Origin: Closterium sp. NIES-65
Lineage: Eukaryota > Streptophyta > Zygnematophyceae > Desmidiales > Closteriaceae
Length of the DNA stretch: 64,000 bases
Direction of reading: 5' to 3'
NCBI GenBank assembly: GCA_948144175.1
Contig: CANXME010002486.1
Coordinates: 124,001-188,000, forward strand
Every line of letters starts with the position of its first letter. Within the stretch, counting starts at the first letter, position 1. The notes under the pieces are model-generated. The model was not told where the DNA came from, did no database searches, and worked only from the letters and a program-made list of their open reading frames with translations. Made by a program: the position numbers and the translations under genes. Shown piece after piece: positions 1 to 64,000 of the stretch.

Positions 1-104
1 CGTACCACGCTGCCATTCTCTGTGTCGTACCACGCTGCCATTCTCTGTGTCGTACCATGCTGCCATTCTCTGTGTCGTACCATGCTGCCATTCTCTGTGT
101 CGTA
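1..104. repeat. 25-bp tandem repeat, 4 copies
   Basis: Four near-identical 25-bp units beginning CGTACCACGCTGCC run from the window edge to about 100. They lie inside the alcohol oxidase gene, past the last exon I can place, so they are probably intronic. On the minus strand each unit contains CACAG followed by AGAATGGCAGC, which could be an acceptor plus exon start, but the matching exon would lie outside the window. Confidence 0.9.
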
Positions 105-2911
105 GCTGAGGGAGCACGCAGGACAGGGAGTACTCACATCTGAGCAGGACAGGGAGTACTCACATCTGAGCAGGACAGGGAGTACTCACATCTGAGCAGG
201 ACAGGGAGTACTCACATCTGAGCAGGACAGGGAGTACTCACATCTGAGCAGGACAGGGAGTACTCACATCTGAGCAGGACAGGGAGTACTCACATCTGAG
301 CAGGACAGGGAGTACTCACATCTGAGCAGGACAGGGATTACTCACATCTGAGCAGAGGGAGCTTCGAGAAGGGACAAGTCCGAGCGGAAAAAGTACCCCC
401 CTGCTTCCAGCACCAACACCTTCCTCCGCCGCCCGCTGTCATCCCCACCATTGCCAGCACCACCAGCTGCAGCTGCTGCTTCTGCGAGCTGAGCCGCAAT
501 GATGGCTCCTCCACAGCCCGAACCAATCACCACCGCATCGCATCGCACCACCACAGGCTGGCAAGGGAGCAGCAGATGGTGTGCGGTTGGAAGGAGTGAA
601 GAGCAGTAAACACGGGGCAGAAAGCGGCTGATAATGGATGGTACGAGATGGTTGAGATATAACTCGGTGGAAAGAGATGCTACAAGTTGGAGTGTGTGAG
701 GGGTGGACGGGAAGAGTGGTGGGTGGGCAAGGAGTGTAATGATTTCAGTACAAACAAAGTTCACCTCATAAACGTTTCCCACTATACCACCCACTGCACA
801 CACATCACCTCACCCAAGGGACCCACCTCTCCTTCCCCTTCATCTCGCCTGCCCAGCAGCCCAATCGTCTGCCTGGGCCCCGGAAGCACCTCCACGCCCT
901 TCCCTTGCAGCACTGCTGCCAGCCCCTCGCCCTCTGCTGCACAGTCCACCACCGCCTCGTCCAGTGGCCTCGCCTCGCCTCCCTTCGCCCCACACCCACC
1001 ACTCTCCCCATCTCCCCTCATCATCTCCTCTTCATGCTCTGCTTCTCCTTCGCCTCTGTCGGATTGCTGAGCTGGACGCTGTGCCATGTCAGCATGTTGA
1101 GCTGGCCGTTGTGCCACGTCAGGATCGCAAGCAGCTGAGCTGTCTCGGCCGCGGTGCTTCCCAGCAGCGAGCATGTTGGGATCGGGTCCGCAGTACCCCA
1201 TGGCGCGCCACAGCATGCTATTGCCAGAGCCGTCATGCTGGTGTTTGGGGTGCATGGGGTGCATGGGGTGCGTGGGGTGCATAGGGCGCATGGGGCGCAT
1301 GGGGTGCATGGGGTGCATGGGGTGCATGGAGTGAATGTCAGCATGGGGCGCATTGAGGTCGGCTGACCTAACAGTGTTGATACAATAGATACTTATTCTT
1401 CTATAATGTTTTTCTTACTGCGCACGCCTCAAGCTCAGATTCCACACATGCGAACTGGGAGGGGGCACAGATTGATACAAAGCTTCTGTTGACAGTGCCT
1501 CGCTCATCGCAGCATGAATGGACCCCTCGGGGGAATAAGGGAGGGAGTGAGCGAGGAGTGCTGAATGTGGGAGGGGAGGGGTGCAGGGTTGGGTGATAGC
1601 TAGGGATGAGTGGGGAGCGAGGGTGGTTGGGGTGGGGTGAAAGCGAGGGTGGGGCACAGAATGGACAGGAAAAGGGAGGCTTACCTGAGCGCCCACGTGG
1701 AAGAGCGTGAAGCTGCGGAACGTCTGTGTTGAACACGGGGGTTCACGGGTAAAACAAGGCATAGCGATGTTACAGAGTCATTAACAGCATGGGAATCATG
1801 GAATGCACCACGCTCCACGGAAAAAAATTGAATCTCACACCCACCCGCACCTGTGACATTGAAGTGAAGCTGCCTCGCAAACGCATGTCCTTTTGAGCCA
1901 CCAGGTACACACTCACAGCCTCGAGACACAACTCTCTAGCTTACCCCCGCTCTCCCTCTCACTGTCACCATCCGCCTTCGCCAACCCCCTCCCCTACTCC
2001 CCACCTTGAACACGGTGCGCAGCAGGAAGTTGCTGCTCACGGACCACTGCAGCAGCACGGCCTCGCGAGCCTGCGGCGACAGCTTCGCGAAGGGCTGCAC
2101 GAACGGCGGCCGCCGGGTGAAGGCCCTGCGGCCGGCCAGCAGCAGCGTGCCGAGGCGCGTGGAGAGCAGCCATAGGACCGTGCTGAAGACGGCCAGAGGC
2201 AGGGGTTTCACGCACTGCTTCATTGTCGTGGCCACCTGAACGAAGGGGCGGCAAAGTTGGCGAGTATTGAGATGCCTTCCCAAAGGCGAGTGGAAAGGAG
2301 CCAGAGCAGTGGAATGGAGCGAGCGAAGACGTGATGCCTTCACGGAGGTGACTACGCGAAGGGCCAGCGGCTTCTGCCATTGCTGCATTTTCACGGCCTC
2401 CTGCACGGAAGGGAAGCAGCCACGGCGACGGAGACGAGGAGGTGCCAAGGGAACGAAAAGGCAAGGGATGGAGAGCATGATAGCACGCGACCCGCCGCTA
2501 CGCGTGCACAGGTTGCACGGACCAACGAGGGGACGCTCTCGGAATAGGACCGGACGGAGGGCCGTTGGATCAGAATGCTGAACGAATGGCAGGCGAGCGC
2601 GAGAGGATGCTACCAACGGGCCGACGAACCTTGTCGACGATGCCGAGGCTAGACGCGGATTCCGCGAAGTACGCCGCGATGGCTTCCTTCCGCGGCTCGC
2701 CGTAAAACTCGCTCCATTGGCTAGACGACTGCGAGCCTTCCTTTCGCTTCCCGACGAGCTGGAAATACGGGTCGTCGGAATCCGTCGGAACCGGCATGGA
2801 GGATACGAGCGTGTCGCATATGGCGGTCAACGCGGCGAATTGACGAGGCGACATCGAATGCTTGGGAGGTATGCCTTTCTCCTTGACCTTCTTGCTACTA
2901 CGAGTAGGCAT
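1..2911 (-). CDS. Long-chain fatty alcohol oxidase (GMC/FAO family), 5' part
   Basis: FAO enzymes are membrane-bound FAD oxidases that oxidise long-chain alcohols to aldehydes with O2, feeding omega-oxidation or wax turnover. Exons on the minus strand: 2630-2911 (ATG at 2911; 94 aa including MSPRQFAALTAICDTLV, the usual FAO N-terminus), 2005-2235 (77 aa with a hydrophobic span LWLLSTRLGTLLLAGRR and FKV end), 1685-1723 (SFTLFHVGAQ), about 1110-1237 (WRAMGYCGPDP), about 826-960 (RPLDEAVVDCAAEGEG), and 346-557. The last carries the FAD-binding motif VVIGSGCGGAIIAAQLA, a glycine/serine-rich insert, KVLVLEAGGYF and EAPSAQM. Exons 1-3 join in frame; the fourth exon's donor and the fifth exon's acceptor are uncertain. 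The rest, including the catalytic GMC C-terminal domain, lies beyond the left edge. Several exon edges are duplicated into introns. The family call is secure; the exact paralogue is not. Confidence 0.85.
119..354 (-). repeat. 26-bp tandem array of exon end plus splice donor
   Basis: About nine 26-bp units. Read on the minus strand, each contains the last bases of the upstream oxidase exon (CTGCTCAGAT) followed by a donor (GTGAGTACTC). The real exon ends at 346, so the array is a string of copied exon-end/donor junctions continuing into the intron. Units are nearly identical, so the expansion looks recent. Confidence 0.85.
1068..1133. repeat. 30-bp direct repeat, 2 copies
   Basis: Two diverged 30-bp units (GCTGAGCTGG... 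and GTTGAGCTGG...) lie near the end of the fourth oxidase exon. They blur where that exon ends. Confidence 0.6.
1245..1330. repeat. 9-bp tandem repeat (GCATGGGGT)n
   Basis: About nine units of a 9-bp motif, some GCATGGGGC or GCGTGGGGT. It lies in the oxidase intron just upstream (minus sense) of the exon starting at 1237. Because the unit is a multiple of three it reads as HPM repeats, but these are not likely to be protein. Confidence 0.85.
2345..2420 (-). repeat. Diverged copy of the start of oxidase exon 2
   Basis: On the minus strand this stretch has an acceptor (GTGCAG) and then encodes EAVKMQQWQKPLALRVVTSV. It is similar to the true exon 2 start VATTMKQCVKPLPLAVFSTV at 2235. It lies upstream of the real acceptor, in the intron, and looks like an old acceptor-side duplication. 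Confidence 0.6.
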
Positions 2912-4297: not shown

Positions 4298-7200
4298 ATG
4301 GGCGATGCGAGCGACACGGACATGGCGGAGCAGCACGAAGTCGCAGACGCCGACACTCGCTACACGGAACAGCAGGAGGACACGGACGGCGACTTTTGCC
4401 ACACCGAACAGCACGAGAACACGAACTCCGACTATCGCTACACGGAGCAGCACGAGAACTCGAATGCCGGCTATACTCGTACACATCAGCGCCGAGTCTA
4501 CTACGATGCGGGTCCCGCCGGTGGCGATCAGGAGCAGCGGCAGGTGTATTACGACACGGACGAATCTCTCGCAGCGAGCGACGACGACGACGGAGACGAC
4601 GACGAGGAGAGCATTCGAGGCGACGACGACTTCGGATTCTCATGGCGCCGACGAGGCAGCCAGCGAGGCGGTACCCGGTCGTTTCAAGACAACTCCGACG
4701 ACGATAATGATCTCGTAGGTCTCCGGATCATCGGTTAATTGTTGCGTGGCGTGTTCATCCAGCCGCCTTCGCGTGCGACAATCACAAATTCCGTCAGTTT
4801 CGTCGCCAGCCTGACTCAGATTAGGTCAGGTCGCTGCGCCATTCCCCGTCGCCGCGCGTCCTGCTTCTTCTTCGACTAAACAAGATCCCTTTTCCTTCCC
4901 CCCACCTCCCCTTGTCTCCTGTCGCACCCTGTTTCACCCTGATGCCAGCTGGAAGGCCCGGAGGACGTGAGCGCGCGGCAGGTGCGGCGGGGGCGGGACA
5001 TTCAGGGGATTCCGTGGGAGCGGCTGCACCTGAGTCGGGAGAAGTACCGCGCGATGCGGCTGCAGCAGTACAAGAACTACAAGAACCTCGACGTGTCATT
5101 GGATGTTGTTGATAAGGTGCGCGCAGTGTTTATGTGCGCGCACATGCGTCATCACGAGAGCAAGTGTCAGGCGTCCTCGATTCTCCGTTACATTCATCTC
5201 CTCCTCGTTTTGCACTTCTTCTCTTCCTTCGGTTTCCCTCCTCCTTCTCCCTCCCCAGCCCCGTTCCCTTCTCACCCCTTCTTCTGCCTGCCTTATCCCG
5301 CATCTTGCCTCACCCTCCACCCTCCACGATATGGCCAAGTCACACTCGGCCTCCTCAATTTACCCCTCTTCTTTCTCCGTCCCCTCTTCTTCCTCCTCAC
5401 CCCTTCCCCTCTCCCTCTCTGGCTCCTTCTTTCCTGCCTTACCCCCCGTCTTGCCTGTCAATTCTCCCAGGAAGTGCAGCAGGTGACGACGGGCAGCAAT
5501 TTCTACGAGTTCACGCACAACACGCGCGCAGTCAAGTCCACCATCGTGCACTTCCAGCTGCGCAACCTCGTGTGGGCCACGTCAGCGCATGACGTGTACT
5601 CGCTGCACCACCACGTCATCAACCACTTCTCCCCGCTCACGCGCAAGTCCACCCCGGTCCTGGACCTCGGAAACCCCCTCGTCGCCAGGCGCCACGCCCC
5701 CCCGCACGCCCACGCGCCCACAGCTGGCGCGCGGGGCGCAGGGGGCGCGGGGGGTGCAGTAGGCAGGGGGGATCAGCGCAGCGGAGTGCAGCTGGAGCCT
5801 TCTGCGCGGGCGATTTACACGGGAGCCATGCCCTCCGCTGCAGGCTCCGCTGCTGCTGGGAGAAGCAACAGCAGTAGCAGCGGTACAGAGGAGGGCAGAG
5901 CGGTGCTGGGGAGAGAGGCAGGGGGACTGGCGCTTTCTCAACAGCAGCAGCAGCAGCAGCAGGAGGGGGTGTGGGAGGCGGTGGATCGGGTACAAGTGAG
6001 CACCATGTGCGTCAGACACGGGCTGCTCGTAGCAGGGGGCTTTCACGGGGAGATGGTCTGCACCAGGCTCGGCACAGGCTCGGAAGCGGACGCAGGCTCG
6101 GGGTCGGAAGCAGGAGTGGCGTTCACAGGGCGGGTATCCCGGGATCAGAGTGCCATCACGAACGCTGTTGAGATCTTCAGATCTAACAGGTGCGAAGGGA
6201 GGGGTTTTGAGGCCCGTCAAAGGTTATTCCGGGATGAGAGTGCCATCACGAACGCTGTTGAGATCTTCAGACCTAACAGGTGCGAAGGGAGGGGTTTTGA
6301 GGCCCGTCAAAGGTTATCCCGGGATGAGAGTGCCATCACGAACGCTGTTGAGATCTTCAGATTCAACAGGCCATTCCTGCCATTCTAGCCTCTCCTGTCA
6401 TCAATTCTTCCTTGTGCCTCTCCCCCTCTCTCGATTTTCTCCACTCTCTTGCTTGTTTCCTGTCTCTCTCGCCCCTTCCGCCTTTTGCTCGCCCGCAGTG
6501 GAGCACTGAGTGTGCTCACGTCCAACAACGACTGTGTGGTGAGGGACTTCGACATCGCCACCTTCTCCATCCTCTCCCGCCAAGCCTTCCCTTGGCCCGT
6601 CAATGTGAGCCCCGCCCACTCATCTTTGTCTCGCATGTCCCTCTCAGCTGCTCATCTACTGCTCTCATCTCCCACCTCTCACCTTTCGTCTCTCACCTCT
6701 CACGTCTCGTTCTCCCTCCTCCATCCCGCGCGCCCCCCTCTCCCATTGCCCACCAGCACACGGCAGTGGCACCGGACAGCACGCTCGTGTCAGTGGTGGG
6801 GGACGACCCCGAAGCATTGCTACTCGACCTCACCTCGGGCAAGGTCTGCTCCTCTCGCCCTCGCCCCCCCCTGCTCACTCCACACCCTCCTCTCTCACGC
6901 CTCCCTGCTCACTCCGTTTCCCGCTCCCCTCCCTGCCCGCACCACCGTTGCTCTTCCTCTCCTCCCTCTCCTCCCTGCTCACTCCACCCCCGCCCATCCA
7001 CACCTCTGCTGACTCTTGCCGGGTGTGCCTCGCTCGCTTCACCATCCACCTTTGCCATCACCTTGGAATGAAGTTATTTTCGTCCTTCACCTGTCCACGT
7101 GTTTCATCCTCTGCCTCTGCCCCCCACAGCTCTCAGCCTCTCTTCCTCTCCCCTGTCTCACGTGCCTCATCCCCCCACACAACCCCCATACCCCCCCATA

Positions 7201-8213
7201 TCCCCCCCATACCCCCCCATACCCCCCCATATCCCCCCCATACCCACCCATATCCCCCCCATACCCCCTCATATCCCCCATGTCCCCACTCCTGCATGTC
7301 AAACCACTCACTGCCCTCACAGGTTGTAGCGCGCATGCAGGGCCACGTGGACTACTCCTTTGCTACAGCCTGGCACCCGGGCGGCAACCTCTTTGCCACG
7401 GGCAACCAGGACACCACGTGTCGCGTGTGGGACCGCCGGCGACTTGACAATTCCCTGTTCACCCTCAAGGGGCGATTGGGGGCTATTCGGTCACTCAGAT
7501 TCACCAGCGATGGCAGGTGGGTCTCCGTTGGGGGGAGAGGGAAGGGAATAGGCAGTTTTAGGTGGGTGTGTGCATGGCTGGGAGGGAAGGGCCAATTAGG
7601 ACACCACGTGTCACGTGTGGGACCGGCGGCGACTTGACAATTCTCTGTTCACCCTCAAGGGGCGCTTGGGGACCATTCGGTCACTCAGTTTCACCAGCGA
7701 TGGCAGGTGAGTTTCTGTTGGGGGGAGAGGGAGGGAGGGAGGGCCCATGGTGCGTGTCTTTGACGCAAGCAGCCTCCCTCGCTCCTAGCCCCCGTCCCTC
7801 ACCACATGCTTGCACATGGCACATCAACTCGAATTCTCTCCCTCCCTCCCCCCACCACTCCTCTCCCCCAGGTTCATGGCCATGGTTGAGCCAGCAGACT
7901 TTGTGCATGTCTTCGACACGAGCAGTGGGTTCACATGGCACATCAACTTGTAATTCCTCCCCCCCTCCTATCCACCACTCCCCTTCCGCCCAGGTTCATG
8001 GCCATGGCTGAGCCAGCAGACTTCGTGCATGTATTCGACACGAGCAGCGGGTTCACACGAGCACAGGAGATTGACATATTCGGGGAGATTGCGGGGATAT
8101 CGTTTTCCCCTGATACAGAGGCTCTCTTTATTGGTGTGGCGGATCGCACATACAGTAGTCTCCTGGAGTACACCCGCGCTCACTCATACGCTTATCTTGA
8201 TGCTTGCATTTAA
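4298..8213 (+). CDS. WD40-repeat protein, plant homologue of SPAC2A9.03 family
   Basis: Seven exons join in frame: 4298-4714, 4949-5116, 5471-6189, 6499-6604, 6757-6843, 7323-7516 and 7994-8213, giving 636 aa. All introns are GT-AG. The N-terminus is acidic (SDDDDGDDDEES), followed by RRGRDIQGIPWERL and VKSTIVHFQLRNLVWATS, the signature of a conserved plant/fungal WD40 family of unknown function. A poorly conserved Gly/Gln-rich insert (including seven Gln codons near 5942) follows, then WD40 blades: VSTMCVRHGLLVAGGFHG, ITNAVEIF, SNNDCVVRDFD, SFATAWHPGGNLFATG, TTCRVWDRRRLD, GAIRSLRFTSDG, and a conserved end with ISFSPDTEALFIGVADR and SSLLEY. Upstream in-frame starts exist (4208); 4298 was chosen because the family begins with an acidic leader. 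A donor-side triplication at 6136-6375 would allow in-frame longer forms, and duplicated exon edges lie at 7408-8056. Biochemical role unknown. Confidence 0.9.
5942..5963 (+). repeat. CAG triplet run (polyglutamine)
   Basis: A short CAG run inside WD40 exon 3 encodes seven consecutive glutamines within the poorly conserved insert between the N-terminal motif and the first clear blade. Confidence 0.85.
6136..6375 (+). repeat. 90-bp tandem triplication across WD40 exon 3 end and donor
   Basis: Three copies of a 90-bp unit, with TGCCATCACG starting at 6151, 6241 and 6331. Each holds the codons for SAITNAVEIF and then the exon end at AACAG. Copies one and two are followed by GTGCGAAG, a good donor; the third is followed by GCCATT, at best a GC donor. 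The unit is a multiple of three and stays open through all copies, so use of the second or third donor would lengthen the protein by 30 or 60 aa. Confidence 0.9.
7185..7290 (+). repeat. C-rich microsatellite (CATAYCCCCC)n
   Basis: Imperfect runs of CCCCCCATA and CCCCATATC lie just upstream of the acceptor at 7322 in a WD40 intron. They may act as an extended polypyrimidine tract. Confidence 0.8.
7408..7720 (+). repeat. Duplicated exon 6 end plus donor in WD40 gene
   Basis: A unit of about 190 bp occurs twice: 7408-7597 and, diverged and shorter, 7599-7720. Both copies encode TTCRVWDRRRLDNSLFTLKG and end in GGCAG followed by GTGGGT or GTGAGT. The first donor (7517) gives the conserved protein; the second copy then lies in the intron. 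Confidence 0.85.
7817..8056 (+). repeat. Duplicated acceptor plus exon 7 start in WD40 gene
   Basis: Two tandem units (7817-7933 and 7934-8056) each hold an intron tail, a CAG acceptor and codons for FMAMxEPADFVHVFDTSSGF. Only the second runs on into the conserved C-terminus. Splicing to the first acceptor (7871) reads into a stop shortly after the unit ends, so it would act as a truncating exon if used. Confidence 0.85.
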
Positions 8214-8689: not shown

Positions 8690-8744
8690 ATTGAGAAAGC
8701 TTGCTTTCTTTCTTATCAATTGGCATCGTTCTCATTACAAATGG
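8690..8744 (-). repeat. Split direct repeat B2
   Basis: This 55-bp sequence beginning ATTGAGAAAGC matches B1 at 9072-9126. It marks the 3' end of the tyrosine-recombinase element. Its last 21 bp are repeated once more straight after it. Confidence 0.85.
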
Positions 8745-8884
8745 CATCGTTCTCATTACAAATGGCGTATTACAACATTTGCATCATCGTTCGACATAAG
8801 CTAGTGCGGACTAATAACACTAGCTATTATGTACCCTATCCAAGTGGCATTAGCAAGGCGGTTTACACTGGGGTGGGTGGTGGG

Positions 8885-9071: not shown

Positions 9072-9126
9072 ATTGAGAAAGCTTGCTTTCTTTCTTATCA
9101 ATTGGCATCGTTCTCATTACAAATGG
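9072..9126 (-). repeat. Split direct repeat B1
   Basis: This 55-bp copy of B2 adjoins A2. The end of the tyrosine-recombinase reading frame overlaps it. Confidence 0.85.
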
Positions 9127-10163: not shown

Positions 10164-10180
10164 GGTGTATATATTTTGAA

Positions 10181-12286: not shown

Positions 12287-12344
12287 CGAATGTGTCGGGA
12301 ATATTAACGCATGTCAACGCATGTCTCTTCTTCTCCTCGTTTCC

Positions 12345-12366
12345 CCTTTTTTTTTTTTTTTTTTTT
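12345..12366 (-). repeat. Homopolymer run between gag and RT frames
   Basis: About 22 T residues (A on the coding strand) lie between the gag frame and the RT frame of the tyrosine-recombinase element. The spacer 12287-12741 has no other coding feature I can support. Confidence 0.8.
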
Positions 12367-14193: not shown

Positions 14194-14231
14194 TTTTAAA
14201 AAACACTACATGTGTGTTTAAAAATTATAAT

Positions 14232-50000: not shown

Positions 50001-50301
50001 GCGGAATCAGCAGCTTGAGAAAGGACTCCTGTGCGGGAAAGGTGCGAGAACCTTGTCTCCTGGATGGAACTTGTAAACGTGACACAGGACTCCTTCTGAG
50101 TCAGGTCAGGATTTACGAAGATGTACACGCGGCTTTGAGGAACGTGCAGGAATCTCCTCCCAAAACAGCTCCATCGTGTTCCCTGGAAAGAACTACACAA
50201 TGAATCCGTTCCTTTCTTCCAACTCGGCTCAAGAGCTACGGAGAGCTACGACAAGGCGGCTTGAGGAAGGAGTCCTGTGCGGGCATCTCCTCTCAACAGA
50301 G
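50000..50301 (-). repeat. Degenerate copies of the last proteasome exon, downstream of its stop
   Basis: On the minus strand, fragments of the final exon recur after the stop. 50262-50291 repeats the stretch GGCTTGAGGAAGGA to GCGGGCATCTC found in the exon at 50322-50354. 50010-50075 and 50150-50195 resemble the CTTGTCTCCTGGGTGGAACTT part of the exon. They lie in the 3' UTR or flank. Confidence 0.6.
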
Positions 50302-53300: not shown

Positions 53301-56300
53301 GCTGTCAACATGTCAGGATCATGCCTGCTGTCTACATGTCAGGATCATGCCTGCTGTCAACATGTCAGGATCATGCCTGCTGTCAACATGTCAGGATCAT
53401 GCCTGCTGTCAACATGTCAGGATCATGCCTGCTGTCAACATGTCAGGATCATGCCTGCTGTCAACATGTCAGGATCACGCCTGCTGTCAACATGTCAGGA
53501 TCATGCCTGCTGTCAACATGTCAGGATCATGCCTGCTGTCAACATGTCAGGATCATGCCTGCTGTCAACATGTCAGGATCATGCCTGCTGTCAACATGTC
53601 AGGATCATGCCTGCTGTCAACATGTCAGGATCATGCCTGCTGTCAACATGTCAGGATCATGCCTGCTGTCAACACGTCAGGATCATGCCTGCTGTCAACA
53701 TGTCAGGATCATGCCTGCTGTCAACACGTCAGGATCATGCCTGCTGTCAACATGTCAGGATCATGCCTGCTGTCAACATGTCAGGATCATGCCTGCTGTC
53801 AACATGTCAGGATCATGCCTGCTGTCAACACGTAAGGTTCATGCCTGCTGTCAACACGTCAGGATCATGCCTGCTGTAAACATGTCAGGATCATGCCTGC
53901 TGTCAACATGTCAGGATCATGCCTGCTGTCTACATGTCAGGATCATGCCTGCTGTCAACATGTCAGGATCATGCCTGCTGTCAACATGTCAGGATCATGC
54001 CTGCTGTCAACATGTCAGGATCATGCCTGCTGTCAACATGTCAGGATCATGCCTGCTGTCAACATGTCAGGATCACGCCTGCTGTCAACATGTCAGGATC
54101 ATGCCTGCTGTCAACATGTCAGGATCATGCCTGCTGTCAACATGTCAGGATCACGCCTGCTGTCAACATGTCAGGATCATGCCTGCTGTCAACATGTCAG
54201 GATCACGCCTGCTGTCAACATGTCAGGATCATGCCTGCTGTCAACATGTCAGGATCATGCCTGCTGTCAACATGTCAGGATCATGCCTGCTGTCAACATG
54301 TCAGGATCATGCCTGCTGTCAACATGTCAGGATCATGCCTGCTGTCAACATGTCAGGATCATGCCTGCTGTCAACATGTCAGGATCATGCCTGCTGTCAA
54401 CATGTCAGGATCATGCCTGCTGTCAACACGTCAGGATCATGCCTGCTGTCAACACGTCAGGATCATGCCTGCTGTAAACATGTCAGGATCATGCCTGCTG
54501 TCAACACGTCAGGATCATGCCTGCTGTCAACATGTCAGGATCATGCCTGCTGTCAACATGTCAGGATCACGCCTGCTGTCAACATGTCAGGATCATGCCT
54601 GCTGTCAACATGTCAGGATCATGCCTGCTGTCAACATGTCAGGATCATGCCTGCTGTCAACATGCGATGTTGCACAACGCGGAAATGGAATTGCGAGCCA
54701 GTCGAAAAAACGTGGGAAACGTGGGATATGCTTTGAAAGGGAAGAGGAAACGTGGGATGGAAGAGGGGGAGGCGGGGGGGGGGGGTGGCGGTGGGATGTC
54801 CAGGAAAATAGTGTTTGAAATAACACATGGTGGCTAATAGGTTGTGGACAAGAATGGAGTCACCTTGTTGTGGTAGCTGATTTGCTTGACCACATTAGCC
54901 ACCGTCTTCACATCTGTAGGCTTGCCCAGCTCCATCCTGATGCCATGCCATGCCATGGCATGCCACGCCACACCACGGGATTGGAGACAGAAGGCTTGAT
55001 GTGAGATGGTGTGATACTATGCGATGATCTAATGGGATGTGATGTGATGTGATGTGATGTGATGTGATGTGATGTGATGTGATGTGATGTGATGTGATGT
55101 GATGTGATGTGACACGATGTGATGTGACACGATGTGTGCATATTCAACCATAAGACATGCACAAACAACCAATTCACAACATGTGCATAAAGATATCGAA
55201 GGGTCGCTGATAGCATGCATAGACTAGATAGAACCGGAGAGCAACGTCCTGCAACCTTTTGATTGAATGTGAACTCATTGCTGCTACCCAAATCCTGAAA
55301 AAAAAAAGTTTCAGTCCGAGATCACTCACTATGCTGACTGGCAAGGTAGTTGTGTGCAAAGGTGGACACCGCTACCTGCACTCCTTGCTGCATTCACTGC
55401 TGCTGCGAGAGGTAGTGTTGTGCATACGTGGACACTGTCTGGGTGTCTTTGTTTCTATCCCTCTCCGTGCTGCTCTCAGCACTCACATGAGTAAGCTCTG
55501 CACTCACTGGTGTTGTGAGAGGTAGTACTGTGCATACGTGGACACTGTCTGGGTGTCCGCAGCCTGCAGAGAAAAAGATGGTTGCAGCCAGATGTTAGGA
55601 AAGTGAGTATTGCTAACAAGGTTGACAGCAAGAGCAGATATTATTAAGTTGATAATCAGGCAAATAGGCTGACATTCGGGCAAACGGGTTGACATTCAGG
55701 CAAACAGGTTGACATTCAGGCGAACAGGCTGACATTCAGGCAAACAAGCTGACATTCAGGTAAACAGGTTGACATTCAGGCAAACAGTCTGAGATATAGG
55801 CAAAAAGGCCAACATTCAGGCAAACAGGCTGACATTCAGGCAAACAAACTGACATCCAGGCAAACAGGCTGACATTCAGGCAAACAGGTTGACATTTAGG
55901 CAAACAGGCTGACATTCAGGCAAACAGGCTGACATTCAGGCAAACCGGTTGACATTCAGGCAAACAGGCTGACATTCAGGCGAACAGGCTGACATTCAGG
56001 CAAAGAGGTTGACATTCAGGCAATCAGGCAGACATTCAGGCAAACAGGCTGACGTTCAGGCAAAGAGGCTGGCATTCAGGCAAACAGGCTGGCACTTAGG
56101 CAAAGGGGCGACATTCAGGCAAACAGGCGGACGTTCAGGCAAACAGGCTGGCACTTAGGCAAAGGGGCGACATTCAGGCAAACAGGCGGACGTTCAGGCA
56201 AACAGGCTGACGTTCAGGCAAACAGGTTGACATTCAGGCAAACAGGTTAACATTCAGGCATACAGGTTGACATTCATGCAAACAAGCTGACATTCAGGCA

Positions 56301-57956
56301 AACAGGCTGACATTCAAGCAAACAAGTTGACATTCAGGCAAACAGGCTACAATTCAGGCAAACAGGCTGACATTCAGGCAAGCAGGCTGACATTCAGGCA
56401 AACAGGCTGACATTCCAGCAACTGACCTTCAGGCAAACCGGTTGACATTCAGGCAAACAGGCTGACATTCAGGCAAACAGGCTGACATTCAGGCAAACAG
56501 GCTGGCATTCAGGCAATCAGGCTGACATTCAGGCAATCAGGCTGGCGTTCAGGCAAACAGGCTGACATTCAGGCAGCAAACATCTAGGTTGACAATGAAA
56601 CAAACATCCAGGTTGACAATCAAGCAAACATCCAGGTTGAGAATCAGGCAAACATCTAGGTTGAAAATCAGGCAAATATCCAGGTTGAGAATCAGGCAAA
56701 CATCCAGGTTGAGAATCAGGCAAACATCTAGGTTGAAAATCAGGCAAACATCCAGGTTGACGATTAGGCGGACATCTCTAATCACATTACCTTTCATTGT
56801 AAAAAAGCAAAAATCCCTTTAACAGCAGCAATCCAATCACTCACAGAGCCTGATCGGCAGAGGTAGGCGAAGTCTGTGAGAGCAGTGATCTTCTCAGACG
56901 CTCTGTTGCTGATGTACGTTCCTGGCGATGGCGCAGGAGAAAGACACGGGAGATCATGGAAGAGGAGGGAGTGAGAGGGCCATCAGAAAGCACGGACAGC
57001 AGTGATCTTCTCACACGCTCTGTTGCTGATGTACGTTCCTGGCGACGCAGCAGGCGACGCCACGTGTGAAGGCACGGGAGAAGGGAAGGAAATCGCAGGA
57101 GAGCAGAAAATGAGAAGGCCAGAGAGGGACAGATGGAAGGAAACGTGACACGAGGAGAGAACGAAAGAACGAAACGAAGGAACGGACGAACGGACAAACC
57201 GACTAAGGAACGATCGACGAGCGACGGAACCGTCTCAACTTGAATCGAGAATTGATGTTGTTCTCTGAAATGATTCAATATTACCTGTGGTAACCCGAGT
57301 ATCAGCTCCAAGCACGACCCCCCCATCGTATGCCACTGCCATGATGGTCGTCTGCGGGAGAAGCAAGGGAAGCATTCGAATCAAGCACAACAGATGATGC
57401 GACGCTGCTAGATTTGAGCCAAACAATTGTTGCGTCTAGACAATTGAACCAGGCGAAGGTGAAAGCAAGAAAATGAGACTGCGATAATCCCAAGGAAAGC
57501 GCAGTTGCGACAATCCCAAATGGTGAAAGCAAGGCCTAGAGGGAGACCTGAAACCATAAGAGTTTTTTGGAATCTCTACAGAAAGTCATGAATCTGGCCA
57601 CTCTTGAGTCATTCAGCATGTAATAACCACAAGGATGATATGATTCTCCTGAATCCAGATAAACTAGCAACAGTTCCAAAGCTGGCATCGTCTGCTGACA
57701 CGAAGTGACTTTAGAGTCGAATATTGTAAGCGTAATGTCCGCGTTCAATCGCTTTTCGGAAACGCCAAGCACAGACGGCGCCGCACAGAGGAGCCGCTGA
57801 GCAACTGAAACCATATCCGAAGCGCCTCACACGTACGCTAGCTGCTGATGGGATCTGAATCAGGATCTATTGTTAATGTAAGTCACAGATAATCTGTCCC
57901 GGAACACCCACCCCGGTTGATACGGCTCCATACGAGCTCGCGCAATCCACCTCCAT
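50302..57956 (-). CDS. 20S proteasome subunit beta-1 (beta type-6)
   Basis: This is the catalytic beta subunit giving caspase-like cleavage in the 20S core. Eight exons join in frame to 231 aa: 57912-57956, 57285-57351, 56845-56921, 55508-55563, 54864-54936, 51831-52016, 50763-50837 and 50302-50418. A 15-aa propeptide [15 protein letters not shown] precedes the catalytic threonine of [11 protein letters not shown]. Counting from it, Asp17 (GAD), Arg19 and Lys33 (NRASEK) are all in place, so the enzyme should be active. Later motifs are [76 protein letters not shown] and [15 protein letters not shown]. The length fits plant PBA1 (about 233 aa). Introns are swollen by minisatellites and by tandem copies of at least four of the exon edges, so the gene spans 7.7 kb for 0.7 kb of coding sequence. 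Confidence 0.93.
50889..51258. repeat. 7-bp satellite (CACAGGG)n
   Basis: About fifty almost perfect heptamers lie in the intron between the proteasome exons at 50837 and 51831. They are open in every frame and yield spurious CALCPVP or QGTGHRA frames. Confidence 0.95.
51345..51495. repeat. 22-bp tandem repeat
   Basis: About seven units of CACAGAGAGAACACAGCATA plus two bases, diverging toward the right end. They lie in the same proteasome intron. Confidence 0.9.
51700..51770 (-). repeat. Copy of the end of proteasome exon 6 with donor
   Basis: On the minus strand it encodes IGGSGSSYL, then [10 protein letters not shown], and is followed by GTGAGCTTT. It duplicates the exon 6 end (donor after 51831) with an internal shortening. 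It lies downstream of the real donor, in the intron. Confidence 0.8.
52100..52405 (-). repeat. Upstream copies of the start of proteasome exon 6
   Basis: Two long copies (about 52117-52183 and 52268-52336) encode [10 protein letters not shown](G/R)WDQYDG, as does the real exon at 51945-52016. A stub at 52391-52403 keeps only the first codons. Spacing is about 155-165 bp. One copy keeps an AG just before the AACATG start. Confidence 0.85.
52580..54664. repeat. 26-bp minisatellite, about 80 copies
   Basis: Unit AGGATCATGCCTGCTGTCAA plus CATGTC, with a few recurring variants (CAC for CAT, ACACG for ACATG). On the minus strand it reads ACATGTTGACAGCAGGCATG, close to ACATGCTATCAGCGGGCATG at the start of proteasome exon 6. 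Because 26 is not a multiple of three, all three frames are open and give long spurious proteins. It fills most of the intron between exons 5 and 6. Confidence 0.97.
55035..55125. repeat. 5-bp microsatellite (GATGT)n
   Basis: About seventeen perfect pentamers plus a few with CACGATGT, in the proteasome intron between exons 4 and 5. Confidence 0.95.
55344..55450 (-). repeat. Two copies of proteasome exon 4 with donor
   Basis: The copy at about 55409-55450 encodes [17 protein letters not shown], followed by a possible donor GTGAAT. The copy at about 55344-55372 is more decayed. The real exon is 55508-55563 ([18 protein letters not shown]), upstream of both in the sense of transcription. Confidence 0.8.
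55661..56575. repeat. 20-bp minisatellite, about 45 copies
   Basis: Unit GCTGACATTCAGGCAAACAG with many point variants and a few units missing a base. It lies in the intron between proteasome exons 3 and 4. Higher divergence than the 26-bp array suggests it is older. Confidence 0.95.
56578..56770. repeat. 24-bp tandem repeat
   Basis: About eight units of CATCCAGGTTGAGAATCAGG plus CAAA. It adjoins the 20-bp array and shares CAGGCAAACA and GGTTGA with it, so it is probably a derived family. Confidence 0.9.
56998..57046 (-). repeat. Copy of proteasome exon 3 start with acceptor
   Basis: On the minus strand it has CGCCAG and then the codons for [14 protein letters not shown]-like sequence, almost identical to the real exon 3 start at 56921. 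It lies upstream of the real acceptor and has no good donor. Confidence 0.85.
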
Positions 57957-58522: not shown

Positions 58523-61500
58523 TCAGTGCTTGATAGAGCGCTTATACTCCTTGAAGGTGCCGGAGAAGGGCTTGGCCACTCCCTTGTCCACCGCCCACAG
58601 CTGGTCCACACTGCCACTGATCAGATGCTCATCGTGACTCACCTGTGGGAGAAAAGGGAGAAGGATTGGGGATGAAGGTGGGGTGTGGGGGGGAAGGGAG
58701 TGCTGCATTCAGACGAGCTCTGCTGCCCCACACTGTCACCAATCAGATGCTCGATGCTCCTCATGTCTCGCACGCAAACAAAGGGGGTGCTGGGGGGAGC
58801 GGCGGGAGGAGTGTTAAGAAGCAGATGGGGGAAAGAGATTAATGGGTGAGGGGATGAGAGATCAGGCAGGGCTGCAGGACAGTAAAACGATCAGACAGTG
58901 AACCTGGGGGCGGTAAGAAGCAGGCACAACAGCCAGCCACCGGAAGCATGCGAGCGGACTCATGTGAGAGGTCCCAGCCAGCCACATGTCGTGACAGCGC
59001 GGCAGCCACCGGACGCATGCCATGACATGGCATGCGTGTGCCAGGCCACCCTGCACCACGTCCTGCTTCACCACCATTGCATGCTCATCTCCCGACTACC
59101 TCACACCCATACGTGCCCAACAAAGCCACCCATGCCAGATACGCCTTGCACGCACCCATGCCCGACAAGGCTCACCATGAGAACACCGCCTTGGAAGAGA
59201 GCAAGGCCCTGAATCAACGCCTCCACTGCATCGATGTCCTGATGGTGGGGACAGGAAGGGGGGGAATGAGTCGAGAGGTAGAGAGGGAAGAAAGGGGATG
59301 AGTACCGTTACGGAAGCAGAGCAGAGAGCAAGGCCCTGAATCAACGCCTCCACTGCATCAATGTCCTGATGGGGAGGAGAGGAGGGAGGAAGGCACAAGG
59401 ACGAGAGGAGCGAAATACGGGAAAAGTAAAAAAAGCAAGAGGGCAAAGGGAGAAGAGTGCAGGAGGAGAAACGAACAAGATGAGAAAAGAAAATGAGGAA
59501 ATGAGTGCGCTGATGGCAACAGAGTTGGAGGCCCTGAATCAACGCCTCCAGAGCATCGGGCAACCGGAAAGCAAAGCGCAGGAGAGTCAACAAACAAGGA
59601 AGGCACAAAGGGCTGTCAGAAAACATGCAGGACGGCATGCTGGACGAGGTGCGTGTGAGGGTAAGGTGAGGTTACTGCGGTGAGACTGGTGCCAGATGGT
59701 TGGAGGGCGTACCAGATGGTTGGAGGGCGTATTAAATGGTTGGAGGGCGTACCAGATGGTTGGAGGGCGTATTAAATGGTTGGAGGGCGTACCAGATGGT
59801 TGGAGGGCGTACCAAATGGCTGGAGGGCGTACCAGATGGTTGGAGGGCGTACCAGATGGTTGGAGGGCGTACCAAATGGTTGGAGGGCGTACCAGATGGT
59901 TGGAGGGCGTACCAAATGGTTGGAGGGCGTACCAGATGGTTGGAGGGCGTACCAGATGGTTGGAGGGCGTACCAAATGGTTGGAGGGCGTACCAGATGGT
60001 TGGAGGGCTCATCGAGCAGCAGAATGTGCGGCTTGTGGAACGTGATCTTAGCGAATGACACTCTGCTCTTCTGCCCTCCTGTTATGTGCATGGGCAGCGA
60101 GGGTAGGCAGCAGGAAGACACGCAAACAACAATGGCGATGATCTAAACAGACTATGGTTGCTACTTACCTTCGGTGCTGATAACAAACTCAATTTTGAAC
60201 TGACTCAAAAGTCGCCAACTACTTAGAGATACAAGCACAGCAACAGGGAAGGTGGGAGGAGCGCAGACCTGAGAGCGTGTACATGGGCTGCAGTGCCAGA
60301 TTGCCTCCCAGGCCAAAGGAGCCCAGATGCGCCCTCAGCTTCTGCTCCGGTACTCCCTGAGAAAGGGAAGGTGCAGGAGAGGGAGGCATTGGTGGGGGAA
60401 GGTCGGGTTGGGAGGTGCATGGTGCGGTGGGAGGTGATGAGGAAGGGTCAGAGGGCCATGTATGCAGATGCGAATGGGTTTCACCGCGTGTCTGCATTGA
60501 TGCATGAATGAGTTTACTCTGTGGCAAAGAATGTGATTAAAGGGAAGTGCTGGGCAGGGGTGGGTGAGGAAGGTGCGAGGACGAAGTGCATGAAAGGAAG
60601 GTACCAGGAAGGAGCGGGTGAGAGGAAGGTATCAGGGCAGGTGAGAGGAAGGTATCAAGAAAGATCGGGTGAAAAGTAGGCAAAATGACTGCTGCTTCAC
60701 TTCAACTGAGCAAGAGAGACAACAACTAAAGGTGAAAAAAGATGCGCATGGGAAAGGTGCAGGTGAAGGGAAGGTACCGGGAAGGAGTGCGCCATGTAGA
60801 GCAGCGGCGACTTGGAGAGCTCTAGGCCGTCCACGTGGTGCTGCGCGAACACTGCCATGCGCACCTGGTGGTTGGAGAGGGGGTTGGGGGGTCATGGATG
60901 GGGCAGGAGGGAGATGCATGCACGCCATGTGACACGCGTTACATGCTTGCAAGCACGGAAGCTCCAGCCCGTCCATGTGGTGCTGCGCGAACACTGCCAT
61001 GCGCACCTGGTGCATTGAAGGCATGGGGAAGACATGGGGGGTTGGGGAACACATGCATGCCATGCGACAGGATTATCTCTGTGTACAAGAGAGAGCTTGC
61101 GGCCGTCCACATGATGCTGTGCCAACACTGCCATGCGCACCTGGTGGTCGAATGGGGAGGGGATAACGGGCGTTGCATGGATGGTAGGGGGTGTGATGTG
61201 ATGGGCATGACACTCTTGCTATGTGGCATGGCTAACATGCATGCTTGGTTGGAACGATGCATGAATGTCATGATGCCAACAGCATCAGGCTCAAACAGTC
61301 GAAATTGCCCACATGCTGCTGAGAAAACAACACTACCATGCACACCTGGTGCTCGCACACGAAATGTGGCGGGAGGGAGTGGGAGCATGAATAGGTGTCA
61401 CGGATTATACGTACGTGCCGCGCTGCATGGGTTACATGGGTTACATGGGTGCACACCCCCAAGAAAAAGGCGTGCAGAATGGATTCTCGGACAGGGTTTG

Positions 61501-64000
61501 GGAGAAACTCGTACCTTGGGGGAGCGGAAGGCAGTCCCTGAGGTGGGTTTGAGCTCGCCTGATATGAGCTTGAGCAGCGTGGTCTTGCCTATGCCGTTGG
61601 GGCCCACGACTAGAGGGGGGAAGGGGAGGGTAGAGGGGGTAACATGGGGTGGGCGGGCATGAGAAAGAGCTTGAGCAGCGTGGTCTTGCCTATGCTGTTG
61701 GGGCCCACGACTGGATGGAACGAGGGAAGGGATGGGAGATGGGGGAGGATGGGTAGGATGGGGAAGGAAGCAACAAAATTGTGAGAATGACAGCAGTGAG
61801 GGTAAACAGGTGAGAGCACGTGTGCGCAGTGAGGTCTGCTCATGCCGTTAGGCCGACGACTGAAGGGGGCGACGAGCGAGGAAGGGACACACGAGCATAC
61901 AAGAGAGGTCACATGGGAGCGTCGCAAGGTACGTGAGGCACGGCAAGGTACGTGAGGCACGGCAAGGTACGTGAGGCACGGCAAGGTACGTGAGGCACGG
62001 CAAGGGGGAACATACTGGCGAGTCGGCTGTCGAGGTCGATGCCGAAATTGAGGTTCTTGAAGAGCAGCGGGCCACCAGGGTAGCCAAAGTTGACGTCGCT
62101 GCAGGCAGGCAGGGAACGATGTGGGAGGAGGAACGGGGGGGCGATGGGGGGTGAAGAAGAGGTAACCATTAGAGACACAACACAACGGCCATTCACCTTT
62201 ACTGAAACGATGTCAGCATGCGAGCATGTGAGCGTGTAGATTGCGTGCATGTGAGAAATGAACAATTCGTCGGCTTTGTGACACAACTCGCGGCATTCCC
62301 AATTTAGTTCAGTGCACGCATGTGCCACGAACAGTGCCGTGGCATGGGTTTAGCCATGGGCACTGCGAGTGGCCCAGTGCCCCTCATGTGAAGCTGATAA
62401 GGGGCGGCACATGAACCGCCCTCAGCCTAGTGTTGAGTCGCCTCGATAATAGATCTATGCCACTCAAATGCAGCCAACACCCGGGTCACTCACGTGAAGC
62501 TGATGATGGGAGCCTGTGGCCGGTCCTCTGGCGTGGGGAACTCAAAGCGGTACCTGTGGAGAGAATAGGGTGGGGTGGGGTAAGGTGGAGCAGGGACGAG
62601 TGGGTGGGGTAGGGTGGGGAGGAGTGGGTAGGCTTCTAGCAACAACAGGCTCAAGGTGCTGAACTCCAGTCAGCAGGGTAAAACAATGGCAGCAGCAACA
62701 AGCAGTGCACGAGATGAGGTGTGTGCAATGTGTATAATATCTCTACTTGCAGATAGAGTACGGAGGTGGGATGGGGTGGAATGGTGGTGGTGTAACGACG
62801 GCATGGCGGCAAGTGTAGAGCAACACACGCGGGAGCTACGCCGCATTCAGCGAGAGCTGAGGCAGGTGTGCGCAGAGAATGCGGCGCCGCTGCTCAGAGT
62901 GGCGGTGGGGGACAATGAAGTCAATGAAGAGCTGGAAAGGGGCCTCGTCTCCACTCGACTGTCAGCCGCCGCCACTCTGAGCAGCAGCGCCGCATTCTCT
63001 GCCCGCGCCTGCCTCAGCTCACGCTGAACGTGGCGTAGCTCCCTCGTCTGCTGCTCTACACTTGTCGCCATGCCGTCGTTACCCGTGGTGGTGGTGCCGC
63101 CCCTACCTGCGCCACCACCAGCTCCACTCCACCACCACGTCCGCACACGGAGTGGGGCGGGTGGGTGGGGTGTGAGAAGACAGTTGGGCGGGTTTCCTAG
63201 CAACAGCAGGTTCACGGCGCTTGGCTCCAGCAGGGCTTCACAATGGCGGCAACAACCCGCCCCAAAGCACCCACTCACCCTACCCCCACTCACTGCCCGT
63301 TCACTCTCCACCCTCCACACCATGCACCCACTCTACCCCGCTCACTGCCCACCCCCCACTCCCAGCCCTCCACACCCCCCACCCACTCTGGCCCTACTCA
63401 ATGCCCACCCCCCACTCACTCCCAAACCTCCACGCCCCCCACTCACTCGGGATCTGCCACCACAGAATCCACAGTGCCAATTCTCTCCAGCGCCTGCAAT
63501 GCAGAGAGGGGGGGGGGAGTGAAGAGGAGAGCACAGAGGGGGAGAAGGGCGCAGTGTTGGGCAGGAAAGGGAAGGAGGGGCAAAGACGGGAGAAGTTCAG
63601 AGGAGGAGTAAGGCAGTTGAAGAAGCGCGCAGAGGGTGGGAGGAACGTAGTCGGGGAGGGGGTAAGGGCGAAGAAGGGGGAGGTTGCATGTGGAAAATTC
63701 ACGGGAAAAGCACAAGGGAACGTGGAGGGGGAGAAGACACGATCGCAGTGGAAACGAGAGGAAGAGGAATCAGAGTGAGATACGTGGGTTGAAAAAGGAG
63801 GGGTTGCACGGGAGAAGTTACAAGGAAAAGGGCAAGGGAAAGGGCAAGGGAAAGGGCAAGGGAAAGGGCAAGGGAAAGGGCAAGGGAAAGGGCAAGGGAA
63901 AGGGGGCCGGGTGGGGAGGAGAGGAGGGGGGAGAGGAGAATACACGATGACAGTGGAATCGAGGAGAACTTGGAACAGAGTAAGGTGCGTGAGCGGCGAG
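58523..64000 (-). CDS. ABC transporter F family ATPase (ABCF3/GCN20-like), C-terminal part
   Basis: ABCF proteins are soluble twin-ATPase proteins acting with ribosomes or GCN2 signalling, not transporters. Exons seen, all joining in frame: 63447-63493 (ALERIGTVDSVVADPE), 62494-62553 (YRFEFPTPEDRP), 62016-62098 (DVNFGYPGGPLLFKNLNFG), 61515-61609 (Walker A GPNGIGKTTLLKLISG), 60778-60864 (Q-loop VRMAVFAQHHVDGLEL), 60269-60356 (GVPEQKLRAHLGSFGL), 59993-60078 (signature GGQKSRVSFAK, Walker B HILLLDEPSNHL), 59176-59238 (DIDAVEALIQGLALFQGG) and 58523-58642 (H-loop VSHDEHLISGSV, stop at 58523). This is the whole second ABC domain; all catalytic motifs are intact. The first ABC domain lies beyond the right edge. 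The LSGGQKSRV signature favours the ABCF3/GCN20 branch over ABCF1. At least four exon edges are duplicated into introns. Confidence 0.9.
59300..59570 (-). repeat. Two upstream copies of the ABCF DIDAVEALIQ exon
   Basis: About 59310-59370 repeats the acceptor and GACATTGATGCAGTGGAGGC; about 59520-59562 repeats GGAGGCGTTGATTCAGGGCC with more change. The real exon is 59176-59238. Both copies lie upstream in the sense of transcription. Confidence 0.85.
59694..60013 (-). repeat. 20-bp array of ABCF exon end plus splice donor, about 16 copies
   Basis: On the minus strand the unit is GCCCTCCAACCATCTGGTAC, identical to the end of the Walker B exon (codons for PSNHL at 59993) plus its donor GTAC. The array continues downstream from the real donor, so the intron starts with about 16 tandem copies of its own 5' splice site. 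Minor variants (CATTTG, CAGCC) recur in a pattern. Confidence 0.95.
60950..61345 (-). repeat. Three upstream copies of the ABCF Q-loop exon start
   Basis: Copies with a CACCAG acceptor start near 61010, 61144 and 61343 and encode VRMAVFAQHHMDG, VRMAVLAQHHVDG and a decayed VCMVVLFSQQHVG. The real exon starts at 60864. The intron thus carries four tandem-like acceptors, the most distant being the most diverged. Confidence 0.88.
61660..61860 (-). repeat. Two upstream copies of the ABCF Walker A exon start
   Basis: One copy at about 61665-61711 has an AG acceptor and encodes VGPNSIGKTTLLKL. A second, decayed copy lies at about 61835-61857. The real exon starts at 61609. Confidence 0.85.
61925..62005. 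repeat. 19-bp tandem repeat, four copies
   Basis: Unit AGGTACGTGAGGCACGGCA, in the ABCF intron just downstream of the donor at 62015. There is no clear link to exon sequence. Confidence 0.9.
62637..63255. repeat. Long inverted repeat flanked by direct repeats in an ABCF intron
   Basis: Arms of about 110-120 bp at roughly 62790-62908 and 62968-63082 are inverted copies (for example GGCATGGCG and CGCCATGCC; CTGCTCAGAGTGGCGG and CCGCCACTCTGAGCAG). They are separated by a loop of about 60 bp. Outside them, AGCAACAACAGGCTCAAGG at 62639 is repeated directly at 63198 as AGCAACAGCAGGTTCACGG. The arms can be read as a short coiled-coil-like frame, probably by chance. Confidence 0.75.
63826..63905. 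repeat. 12-bp tandem repeat (GGGCAAGGGAAA)n
   Basis: About six to seven perfect units in the ABCF gene, upstream of its first visible exon and presumably intronic. Confidence 0.95.

What the first reader, a model, noticed from the sequence alone, without database searches (positions are those of the whole stretch)
1..64000. Exon-edge amplification: splice junction fragments copied into introns in all four host genes
Seen directly: about fifteen places where a piece spanning an exon-intron boundary is repeated in tandem in the adjoining intron. Oxidase: 119-354 and 2345-2420. WD40: 6136-6375, 7408-7720 and 7817-8056. Proteasome beta-1: exons 3, 4, 6 (both edges) and 8. ABCF: 59300-59570, 59694-60013, 60950-61345 and 61660-61860. 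There is a rule: donor-side copies lie downstream, acceptor-side copies upstream, and the copy furthest from the exon is usually the most decayed. Inference: the genome has a process that repeatedly duplicates DNA at splice junctions, lengthens introns and seeds minisatellites, with selection keeping only the intact exon. It could also create alternative splice sites. I know of no described system that matches this.
Basis: partly seen in the sequence, partly recalled or inferred. Interest (0 to 1): 0.88.

Follow-up and report, generated by a model that had tools for sequence, protein, structure and literature searches.

The report
Exon-edge copies inside neighbouring introns
In this plant-like genome, short stretches covering the ends of exons have often been duplicated into the neighbouring intron; this looks like ordinary short tandem duplication seen through the filter of selection, with only a weak hint that the edges are favoured.

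Summary
In four rebuilt host genes, terminal exon sequence recurs in the adjoining intron at 14 of 51 splice edges, against 5 of 532 edge/other-intron pairs. Copies are direct and lie on the intron side of their own edge. Ten clear families have offsets of 90-190 bp; three of 12 array units also look edge-derived.

A dedicated process is not shown. The direction rule follows from tandem duplication plus selection for an intact mRNA. Similar copies lie beyond the proteasome stop codon, where there is no splice site. The copies look neutral. One partner of each pair is a conserved exon, so these pairs stay recognisable longer.

The test is post hoc, covers four genes and masks the arrays. No whole genome is held, so this stays open. 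Precedents: a potato duplication crossing an intron-exon boundary (PMC4974935); tandem repeats enriched near intron-exon junctions, especially in green algae (PMC3887541).

The parts
118..355 (-). Donor-edge array after OX exon 5 (exon end 346): 26 bp x 9.2, each unit with about 8 nt exon tail plus GTGAGT donor
2345..2420 (-). Weak, old-looking copy of OX exon 2 acceptor edge (exon start 2235)
   Evidence: (63-65% identity)
6132..6370 (+). Donor edge of WD exon 3 (exon end 6189) in 2.6 copies of 90 bp; an open reading frame runs through the copies
7400..7735 (+). Donor edge of WD exon 6 (exon end 7516) and its copy 190 bp downstream, 90.4% over 146 bp
7813..8057 (+). Acceptor edge of WD exon 7 (exon start 7994) and its tandem copy 119-122 bp upstream; 4-nt CACA shared at the breakpoints (by eye)
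50003..50394 (-). 3' coding end of proteasome beta-1 exon 8 (stop codon ends at 50302) and its copies downstream of the stop: offsets 66, 199 and 312-322; no splice site here
51604..51912 (-). Donor edge of proteasome exon 6 (exon end 51831) and its copy (51688-51743 and 51739-51775 by alignment), plus an older copy near 51604-51660 seen by eye
51947..52353 (-). Acceptor edge of proteasome exon 6 (exon start 52016) with two upstream copies (offsets 164 and 320)
52581..54664 (-). 80-copy 26-bp minisatellite in proteasome intron 5; unit matches exon 6 head at 18 of 22 nt (rank 1 of 58 exon ends)
55388..55557 (-). Donor edge of proteasome exon 4 (exon end 55508) and copy at offset 110, 90%
56878..57057 (-). 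Acceptor edge of proteasome exon 3 (exon start 56921) and copy at offset 117, 90.5%
58600..58752 (-). Acceptor edge of ABCF exon 9 (exon start 58642) and decayed copy at offset 122
59196..59558 (-). Acceptor edge of ABCF exon 8 (exon start 59238) with two upstream copies (offsets 127, 325)
59692..60008 (-). Donor-edge array at ABCF exon 7 (exon end 59993): 20 bp x 15.9; by eye 15 nt exon tail plus GTACG per unit
60815..61355 (-). Acceptor edge of ABCF exon 5 (exon start 60864) with three upstream copies (offsets 142, 276, 481)
61566..61863 (-). Acceptor edge of ABCF exon 4 (exon start 61609), copy at offset 101, and an older fragment at 61835-61863 seen by eye
4326..4474 (+). In-frame 39-bp coding repeat in WD exon 1: an exon-internal duplication that keeps the frame

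Best explanation
Short tandem duplications (about 50-200 bp, occasionally shorter units that become arrays) arise often in these genes by a general DNA route such as repair of staggered breaks, end-joining with filler, or replication template switching. Selection removes those that change the mRNA. A duplication across an acceptor leaves the upstream copy in the intron, and one across a donor leaves the downstream copy in the intron, so the direction rule is automatic. Exon-derived copies then stay recognisable for longer, because their partner (the real exon) hardly changes, while intron-only duplications lose both partners. Shown here: the geometry, direct orientation, mixed exon+intron content, absence of a coding or frame signal in the copies, and copies at a non-splice coding end. 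Inferred: the repair route, and that no special attraction to splice sites is needed.
For: Copies are direct and on the intron side (14 of 51 at >=28; inverted 1 of 51 at >=28, 0 of 51 at >=32). In 4 of the 10 clear families the match is longer than its offset, i.e. a full tandem unit (WD exons 3 and 7, ABCF exon 5, proteasome exon 6 acceptor). Proteasome exon 8 has such copies beyond its stop codon. Exon/copy mismatches fall 12, 5 and 22 on codon positions 1, 2, 3 (190, 191, 188 sites); of 37 that could be scored 19 are synonymous and 18 not, which fits a neutral copy plus synonymous change in the exon. Offsets are multiples of 3 in 2 of 10. Exon parts are 90-98% identical in 10 of 12 cases, while intron parts of the same units are 57-84% in 11 of 12. 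With exons masked, only 2 of the 10 families are still found by their intron part alone (WD exons 6, 7) and 2 more by mixed intron and exon-derived sequence (WD exon 3, proteasome exon 6 acceptor), so intron-only events of this age would often be missed. Repeats are common inside introns: 33.6% of 1185 one-sided 60-mer trials (13% averaged per intron, arrays included) reach the score that 10 of 51 exon edges reach. WD exon 1 carries an in-frame 39-bp repeat.
Against: With arrays masked, long-unit families are 10 with exon sequence to 0 intron-only at >=85% and >=80%; 10 to 2 (E<1e-4) or 10 to 3 (E<1e-3) at >=75%; 12 to 5 at >=70% with length and offset >=30. Simulated uniform duplication gives a junction share of 0.46-0.55 with equal decay and 0.62, 0.66, 0.80 if native intron decays 2, 3 or 5 times faster. 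In 6 of 12 cases homology is not detectable beyond 20 nt of the splice site (ABCF exons 4, 8, 9; proteasome exon 3 acceptor, exon 4 and 6 donors; proteasome exon 3 has a local rank of 2 of 25). Where the exon part is 95-98% identical, decay alone does not explain that. Mismatches are clustered at one end in 3 of 10 copies. Repeats are not spread evenly: 60-mer trials reach the same score in 1.9% of 260 intergenic, 0% of 386 and 0% of 250 trials in two retroelement-like stretches, and 12.4% of 1380 in the third.
Confidence: 0.7

Rival explanations
1. A real mutational bias: breaks or nicks occur preferentially around exon-intron boundaries (for example through R-loops, nucleosome edges or splicing-coupled transcription), so junction pieces are duplicated more often than intron interiors.
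For: 10 of 10 long-unit families at >=85% involve exon sequence; simulated share 0.46-0.66 for decay factors 1-3, nominal P about 0.0004-0.016 (my arithmetic: share to the tenth power). Homology is often undetectable beyond 20 nt inside the intron (6 of 12). PMC3887541 reports tandem repeats enriched near intron-exon junctions, especially in two green algae.
Against: Post hoc thresholds, four genes, one window; the masked short-unit arrays are mostly without an exon-edge match (9 of 12 units); at looser settings the ratio is 12 to 5; copies also at a coding end without a splice site.
Confidence: 0.17
2. Gene conversion from the conserved exon keeps nearby exon-derived copies similar, so old duplications look young only in their exon part.
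For: Exon parts 90-98% against intron parts 57-70% in eight of the ten clear families; mismatches clustered at one end in three copies: 6 of 6 in the last 23 of 70 nt, 5 of 5 in the last 20 of 50, 5 of 5 in the last 21 of 50.
Against: Only 3 of 10 copies show the clustering; in half of the 12 cases the intron part may be absent rather than decayed; no population data.
Confidence: 0.05
3. The copies are functional decoy or alternative splice sites kept by selection.
For: Several copies keep a donor or acceptor dinucleotide in place; the WD exon 3 unit is 90 bp and stays open.
Against: Only 2 of 10 offsets keep the frame; 18 of 37 scored changes are non-synonymous; the WD exon 7 upstream copy runs into a stop codon. 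No RNA data were available.
Confidence: 0.03
4. Mobile intron elements (introners) or RNA-templated copying.
For: Copies sit in introns next to splice sites.
Against: Exon edges seldom match other introns: 5 of 532 cross pairs at >=30, 1 at >=56; copies contain exon and intron sequence in direct geometry.
Confidence: 0.02
5. Assembly artefact.
For: No reads were available; tandem repeats are error-prone in assembly (general knowledge).
Against: The compared copies differ from the exon by substitutions and, in intron parts, indels, which false joins of reads would not be expected to make.
Confidence: 0.03

Closest known systems
Tandem duplication across an intron-exon boundary in the potato RdRp gene (PMC4974935; abstract and passages seen)
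   Different: One gene and one event, and it made a new intron; here many edges in four genes, and by the gene models the copy lies inside the existing intron
Tandem-repeat enrichment near intron-exon junctions in plants and green algae (PMC3887541; abstract and passages seen)
   Same: Intron tandem repeats more frequent towards intron ends, especially in Chlamydomonas and Volvox
   Different: Statistical survey of 31 species; the passages seen do not say that the repeats contain exon-edge sequence, and they name the intervals 10-19 and 80-89 of the intron
Small tandem duplication by double-strand-break repair (PMC8355091; passages seen)
   Same: Direct tandem copies of local DNA, some with microhomology
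   Different: Studied in mammalian cells, described as short (<100 bp) insertions; here offsets up to 190 bp and no mechanism tested
Intron gain by duplication of AGGT-containing exon sequence (Rogers model; passages in PMC4974935 and PMC2891723)
   Same: Local tandem duplication tolerated through splicing
   Different: There a new intron forms inside a coding stretch; here copies lie in existing introns

Membership tests
Short tandem duplication (general) | Second copy adjacent, same orientation, homologous across the whole unit | tested here: inconclusive
   Same orientation (inverted 0 of 51 at >=32); match longer than offset in 4 of 10 families; homology beyond 20 nt of the splice site supported in about 6 of 12 and not in 6 of 12
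Short tandem duplication (general) | Not confined to splice junctions | tested here: met
   Proteasome stop-codon end with copies at offsets 66, 199 and 312-322; intron-only arrays and an in-frame exon 1 repeat
Break-repair duplication | Microhomology or filler at breakpoints | tested here: inconclusive
   4-nt CACA at WD exon 7 (by eye); unmatched spacer in six cases; no systematic count
Introner-type mobile introns | Same sequence in several unrelated introns | tested here: not met
   Exon edges only: 5 of 532 cross-intron pairs at >=30, 1 of 532 at >=56; whole introns were not compared with each other
AGGT intron gain | New intron position inside former coding sequence | tested here: inconclusive
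   Copies lie inside the modelled introns and the four reading frames are continuous without them; ages of intron positions not tested
Dedicated exon-edge amplification (reader) | Junction-spanning copies exceed the geometric share after correcting for decay | tested here: inconclusive
   10 of 10 long-unit families at >=85% against simulated 0.46-0.80; small, post hoc, arrays masked; 12 to 5 at looser settings

The most novel reading that the evidence does not exclude
In this lineage exon-intron boundaries are hot spots of local DNA duplication: pieces of about 40-120 nt of exon with a short stretch of adjoining intron are repeatedly copied into the intron, sometimes with unrelated spacer, and some copies grow into minisatellites, so introns lengthen to a large part from their own exon edges.
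Probability: 0.15. Interest if true: 0.65.

Novelty: new member of a known kind. Interest (0 to 1): 0.33.

Why it matters
The window gives a visible record of how introns can grow: local duplications that cross an exon edge are absorbed by the intron, and a few seem to seed minisatellites. It also shows a general trap: selection plus unequal decay can make neutral duplication look like an exon-directed process. If an edge bias were confirmed with young duplications, it would link splicing or transcription to local DNA breakage and could help to explain why tandem repeats concentrate towards intron ends in green algae.

Tried and rejected
Relatives: one protein scan (15 pattern stretches, no relative) and one DNA-pattern scan (0 matches) of viral contigs. 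Genome contigs, described as bacterial and archaeal, was not scanned.

Species: two literature searches aimed at streptophyte algae did not identify it. 'Plant-like' is an inference from the best PDB match 7qve_o (284.7 bits, next 221.4; that 7QVE is spinach is recalled) and a TTTAGGG run.

Considered and put behind the main reading: introners, RNA copying, functional alternative splicing, assembly artefact, gene conversion (see rivals). A first piecewise alignment gave trivial self-overlaps and was replaced. The label 'oxidase' is not confirmed: 0 Pfam families at E<=0.1 for the 391-residue part model; it rests on a Rossmann-like motif recognised from memory.

Literature searches for precedents: (at most 20 rows shown each). 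In those listings I saw no paper on recurrent exon-edge copies across many genes; nothing wider is claimed. Four papers were opened, as abstract and passages only. Gao & Lynch, Rogers and Hellsten are cited here only through passages of PMC4974935.

Left out before counts: 12 array intervals masked. The 12 array units tested are not quite the same set: one masked interval is split in two units, and 63815-63910 was not tested. For ABCF 59692-60008 one search printed no edge score, so its exon content rests on the sequence. The ABCF exon 1 acceptor was left out (its intron runs off the window), and three coding 3' ends are kept apart from the 51 splice edges. One search used 36 nt and one search used 82 nt as the exon part of proteasome exon 6 donor. 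P values are my arithmetic from the simulated fractions. Simulated runs had on average 5.7-7.3 junction families at >=85%, fewer than the real 10.

On checking the draft against the calls I corrected: the full-tandem evidence (match length, not eye), the AGGT test (now inconclusive), the simulated range (now), the inverted count at >=28, and added, the exon-masked result, the intergenic and retroelement rates and the looser settings.
Full report
WHAT IS THERE. The window looks eukaryotic, with four host genes at its two ends and a retroelement-like block between them (the retroelement label is by eye). I rebuilt the genes from reading frames and splice sites. OX (minus, 3' part beyond the window) has exons 2911-2630, 2235-2005, 1723-1685, 1237-827, 557-346. 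WD40 (plus) has seven exons from 4298 to 8213. Proteasome beta-1 (minus) has eight exons from 57956 to 50302. ABCF (minus, 5' part beyond the window) has nine exons from 63493 to 58523. Each model reads through without an internal stop. Pfam gives ABC_tran, Proteasome and WD40. The proteasome model aligns to PDB 7qve_o without a gap over residues 13-223, and ABCF matches 5zxd_A and 6r84_A. The OX part model has no Pfam hit.

CHECK OF THE OBSERVATION. I aligned the terminal 60 nt (or less in short exons) of each exon to up to 600 nt of the adjoining intron. Of 51 splice edges, 14 score 30 or more and 10 score 56 or more. The same edges against other introns of the same gene give 5 and 1 of 532. 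Expected-side copies: 14 of 51 at score >=28 with 40-nt windows. Wrong side: 3 of 44, all in exons of 75 nt or less, where head and tail windows overlap. Inverted: 1 of 51 at >=28, 0 at >=32.

STRUCTURE OF THE COPIES. Twelve exon-edge copies, ten of them the clear long-unit families, were compared piece by piece. Exon parts are 90-98% identical in ten, lower in ABCF exon 9 (77%) and OX exon 2 (63%). Intron parts of the same units are 100% (WD exon 3), 84% (WD exon 7) and 57-70% in the other ten. In 4 of the 10 clear families the match is longer than its offset, so the whole unit is duplicated (WD exons 3 and 7, ABCF exon 5, proteasome exon 6 acceptor). Against 24 other introns as background, homology beyond 20 nt from the splice site ranks first in those four, second by global score in WD exon 6 and OX exon 2, and is not supported by global score in ABCF exons 4, 8 and 9 and proteasome exon 3 acceptor, exon 4 donor and exon 6 donor (proteasome exon 3 ranks 2 of 25 by local score). 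So about half look like full tandem units, and half like an exon piece plus, at most, splice signal, followed by spacer. Mismatches between exon and copy (ten copies) fall 12, 5 and 22 on codon positions 1, 2 and 3 (190, 191, 188 sites); of 37 that could be scored 19 are synonymous and 18 not. This fits a neutral copy plus some synonymous change in the exon. Offsets keep the frame in 2 of 10. Three copies have all their mismatches at one end, which hints at conversion or at two overlapping events.

ARRAYS. Short-unit arrays fill much of several introns. Of 12 units examined, two arrays contain the exon edge itself (OX 118-355, ABCF 59692-60008). A third, the 80-copy 26-bp array 52581-54664, has a unit that matches the head of proteasome exon 6 at 18 of 22 nt, rank 1 of 58 exon ends, shuffle p 0.002 (20 such tests were made, so corrected support is modest). 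The other nine show no exon-edge match that would survive correction (best p 0.03, OX 1-104).

IS A SPECIAL PROCESS NEEDED? The direction rule needs none: in any tandem duplication across an acceptor the upstream copy becomes intron, and across a donor the downstream copy does. The proteasome 3' coding end shows copies at offsets 66, 199 and 312-322 beyond the stop codon, with no splice site involved; ABCF shows a weaker one, WD none; 0 of 3 coding 5' ends do. By geometry 29% of allowed duplications of these sizes would cross a junction, 40% if array bases are removed. Counting all repeats, edges are not special: 10 of 51 edges reach score 56, against 33.6% of 1185 one-sided intron 60-mer trials, or 13% averaged per intron. 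With exons masked, only WD exons 6 and 7 are still found by their intron part alone, and WD exon 3 and proteasome exon 6 acceptor by mixed sequence, i.e. 2 to 4 of 10. Intron-only events of the same age would thus often be missed, if the missing intron parts decayed rather than never existed.

THE RESULTS THAT GO THE OTHER WAY. With arrays masked and one detector for all (offset 40-900, length >=40), the real genes give 10 families with exon sequence and 0 intron-only at >=85% and at >=80%. At >=75% the counts are 10 to 2 (E<1e-4) or 10 to 3 (E<1e-3), and 12 to 5 at >=70% with length and offset >=30. Forward simulation of uniform duplication with selection on exons gives a junction share of 0.46-0.55 with equal decay (8 replicates at each of three rates, 24 replicates per setting), and 0.62, 0.66 and 0.80 if native intron decays 2, 3 and 5 times faster. 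Replicates without any intron-only family at >=85% were 0, 0, 0, 2 and 5 of 24 over the five settings. Ten of ten then has a nominal probability of about 0.0004-0.003 (equal decay), 0.008, 0.016 and 0.1 (my arithmetic). In alignable units I read the intron part as diverged at most about 3.3 times as much as the exon part (my count), where plain neutrality predicts about 2, so a decay factor well above 2 is not supported. In several units with a 95-98% exon part the intron part is unrecognisable, which decay alone does not explain. Repeats are also uneven: the same 60-mer score is reached in 1.9% of 260 intergenic trials, 0% of 386 and 250 trials in two retroelement-like stretches and 12.4% of 1380 in the third. 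I therefore cannot dismiss an edge bias. The thresholds were chosen after seeing the data, the sample is four genes, and the arrays were masked.

MECHANISM. Most likely this is general short tandem duplication by break repair or template switching, partly with filler, filtered by selection and by unequal decay. Shown: orientation, side, mixed exon+intron content, no coding or frame signal, occurrence at a non-splice edge. Inferred: the repair route. A 4-nt CACA is shared at the WD exon 7 breakpoints (by eye).

WHAT IS KNOWN. PMC4974935 describes a tandem duplication crossing an intron-exon boundary in a potato gene (passages). PMC3887541 reports significantly more tandem repeats near intron-exon junctions, especially in two green algae, in a survey of 31 species (abstract and passages). 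PMC8355091 ties small tandem duplications to break repair (passages). The introner test on exon edges was not met; the AGGT intron-gain test is inconclusive. The finding is a dense new example of a known kind, with an open question about edge preference.

Noticed in passing
62792-63082: A 291-bp inverted repeat (81.5% self-complementary) lies in the ABCF intron between exons 1 and 2.
   Followed up: no
8690-8744 and 9072-9126: Two identical 55-nt direct repeats beside a block of four long minus-strand reading frames (9117-17709); may be the end of a retroelement (DIRS-like by recall, not tested).
   Followed up: no
36475-36511: Short interstitial run of TTTAGGG (5.4 copies), the plant-type telomere unit by recall, inside the retroelement-like block.
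   Followed up: no
21531-22343, 28524-29211, 29415-29722: Long tandem duplications (429, 332 and 153 bp units) inside the retroelement-like block: local duplication is not confined to host introns.
   Followed up: partly
about 51266-51295: A decayed fragment resembling part of proteasome exon 7 (score 32, z 6.9, position by eye) lies beyond a 53-copy GCACAGG array, so an array may have grown between an exon and its copy.
   Followed up: partly
59013-59037: 25-nt near-perfect palindrome in ABCF intron 8.
   Followed up: no
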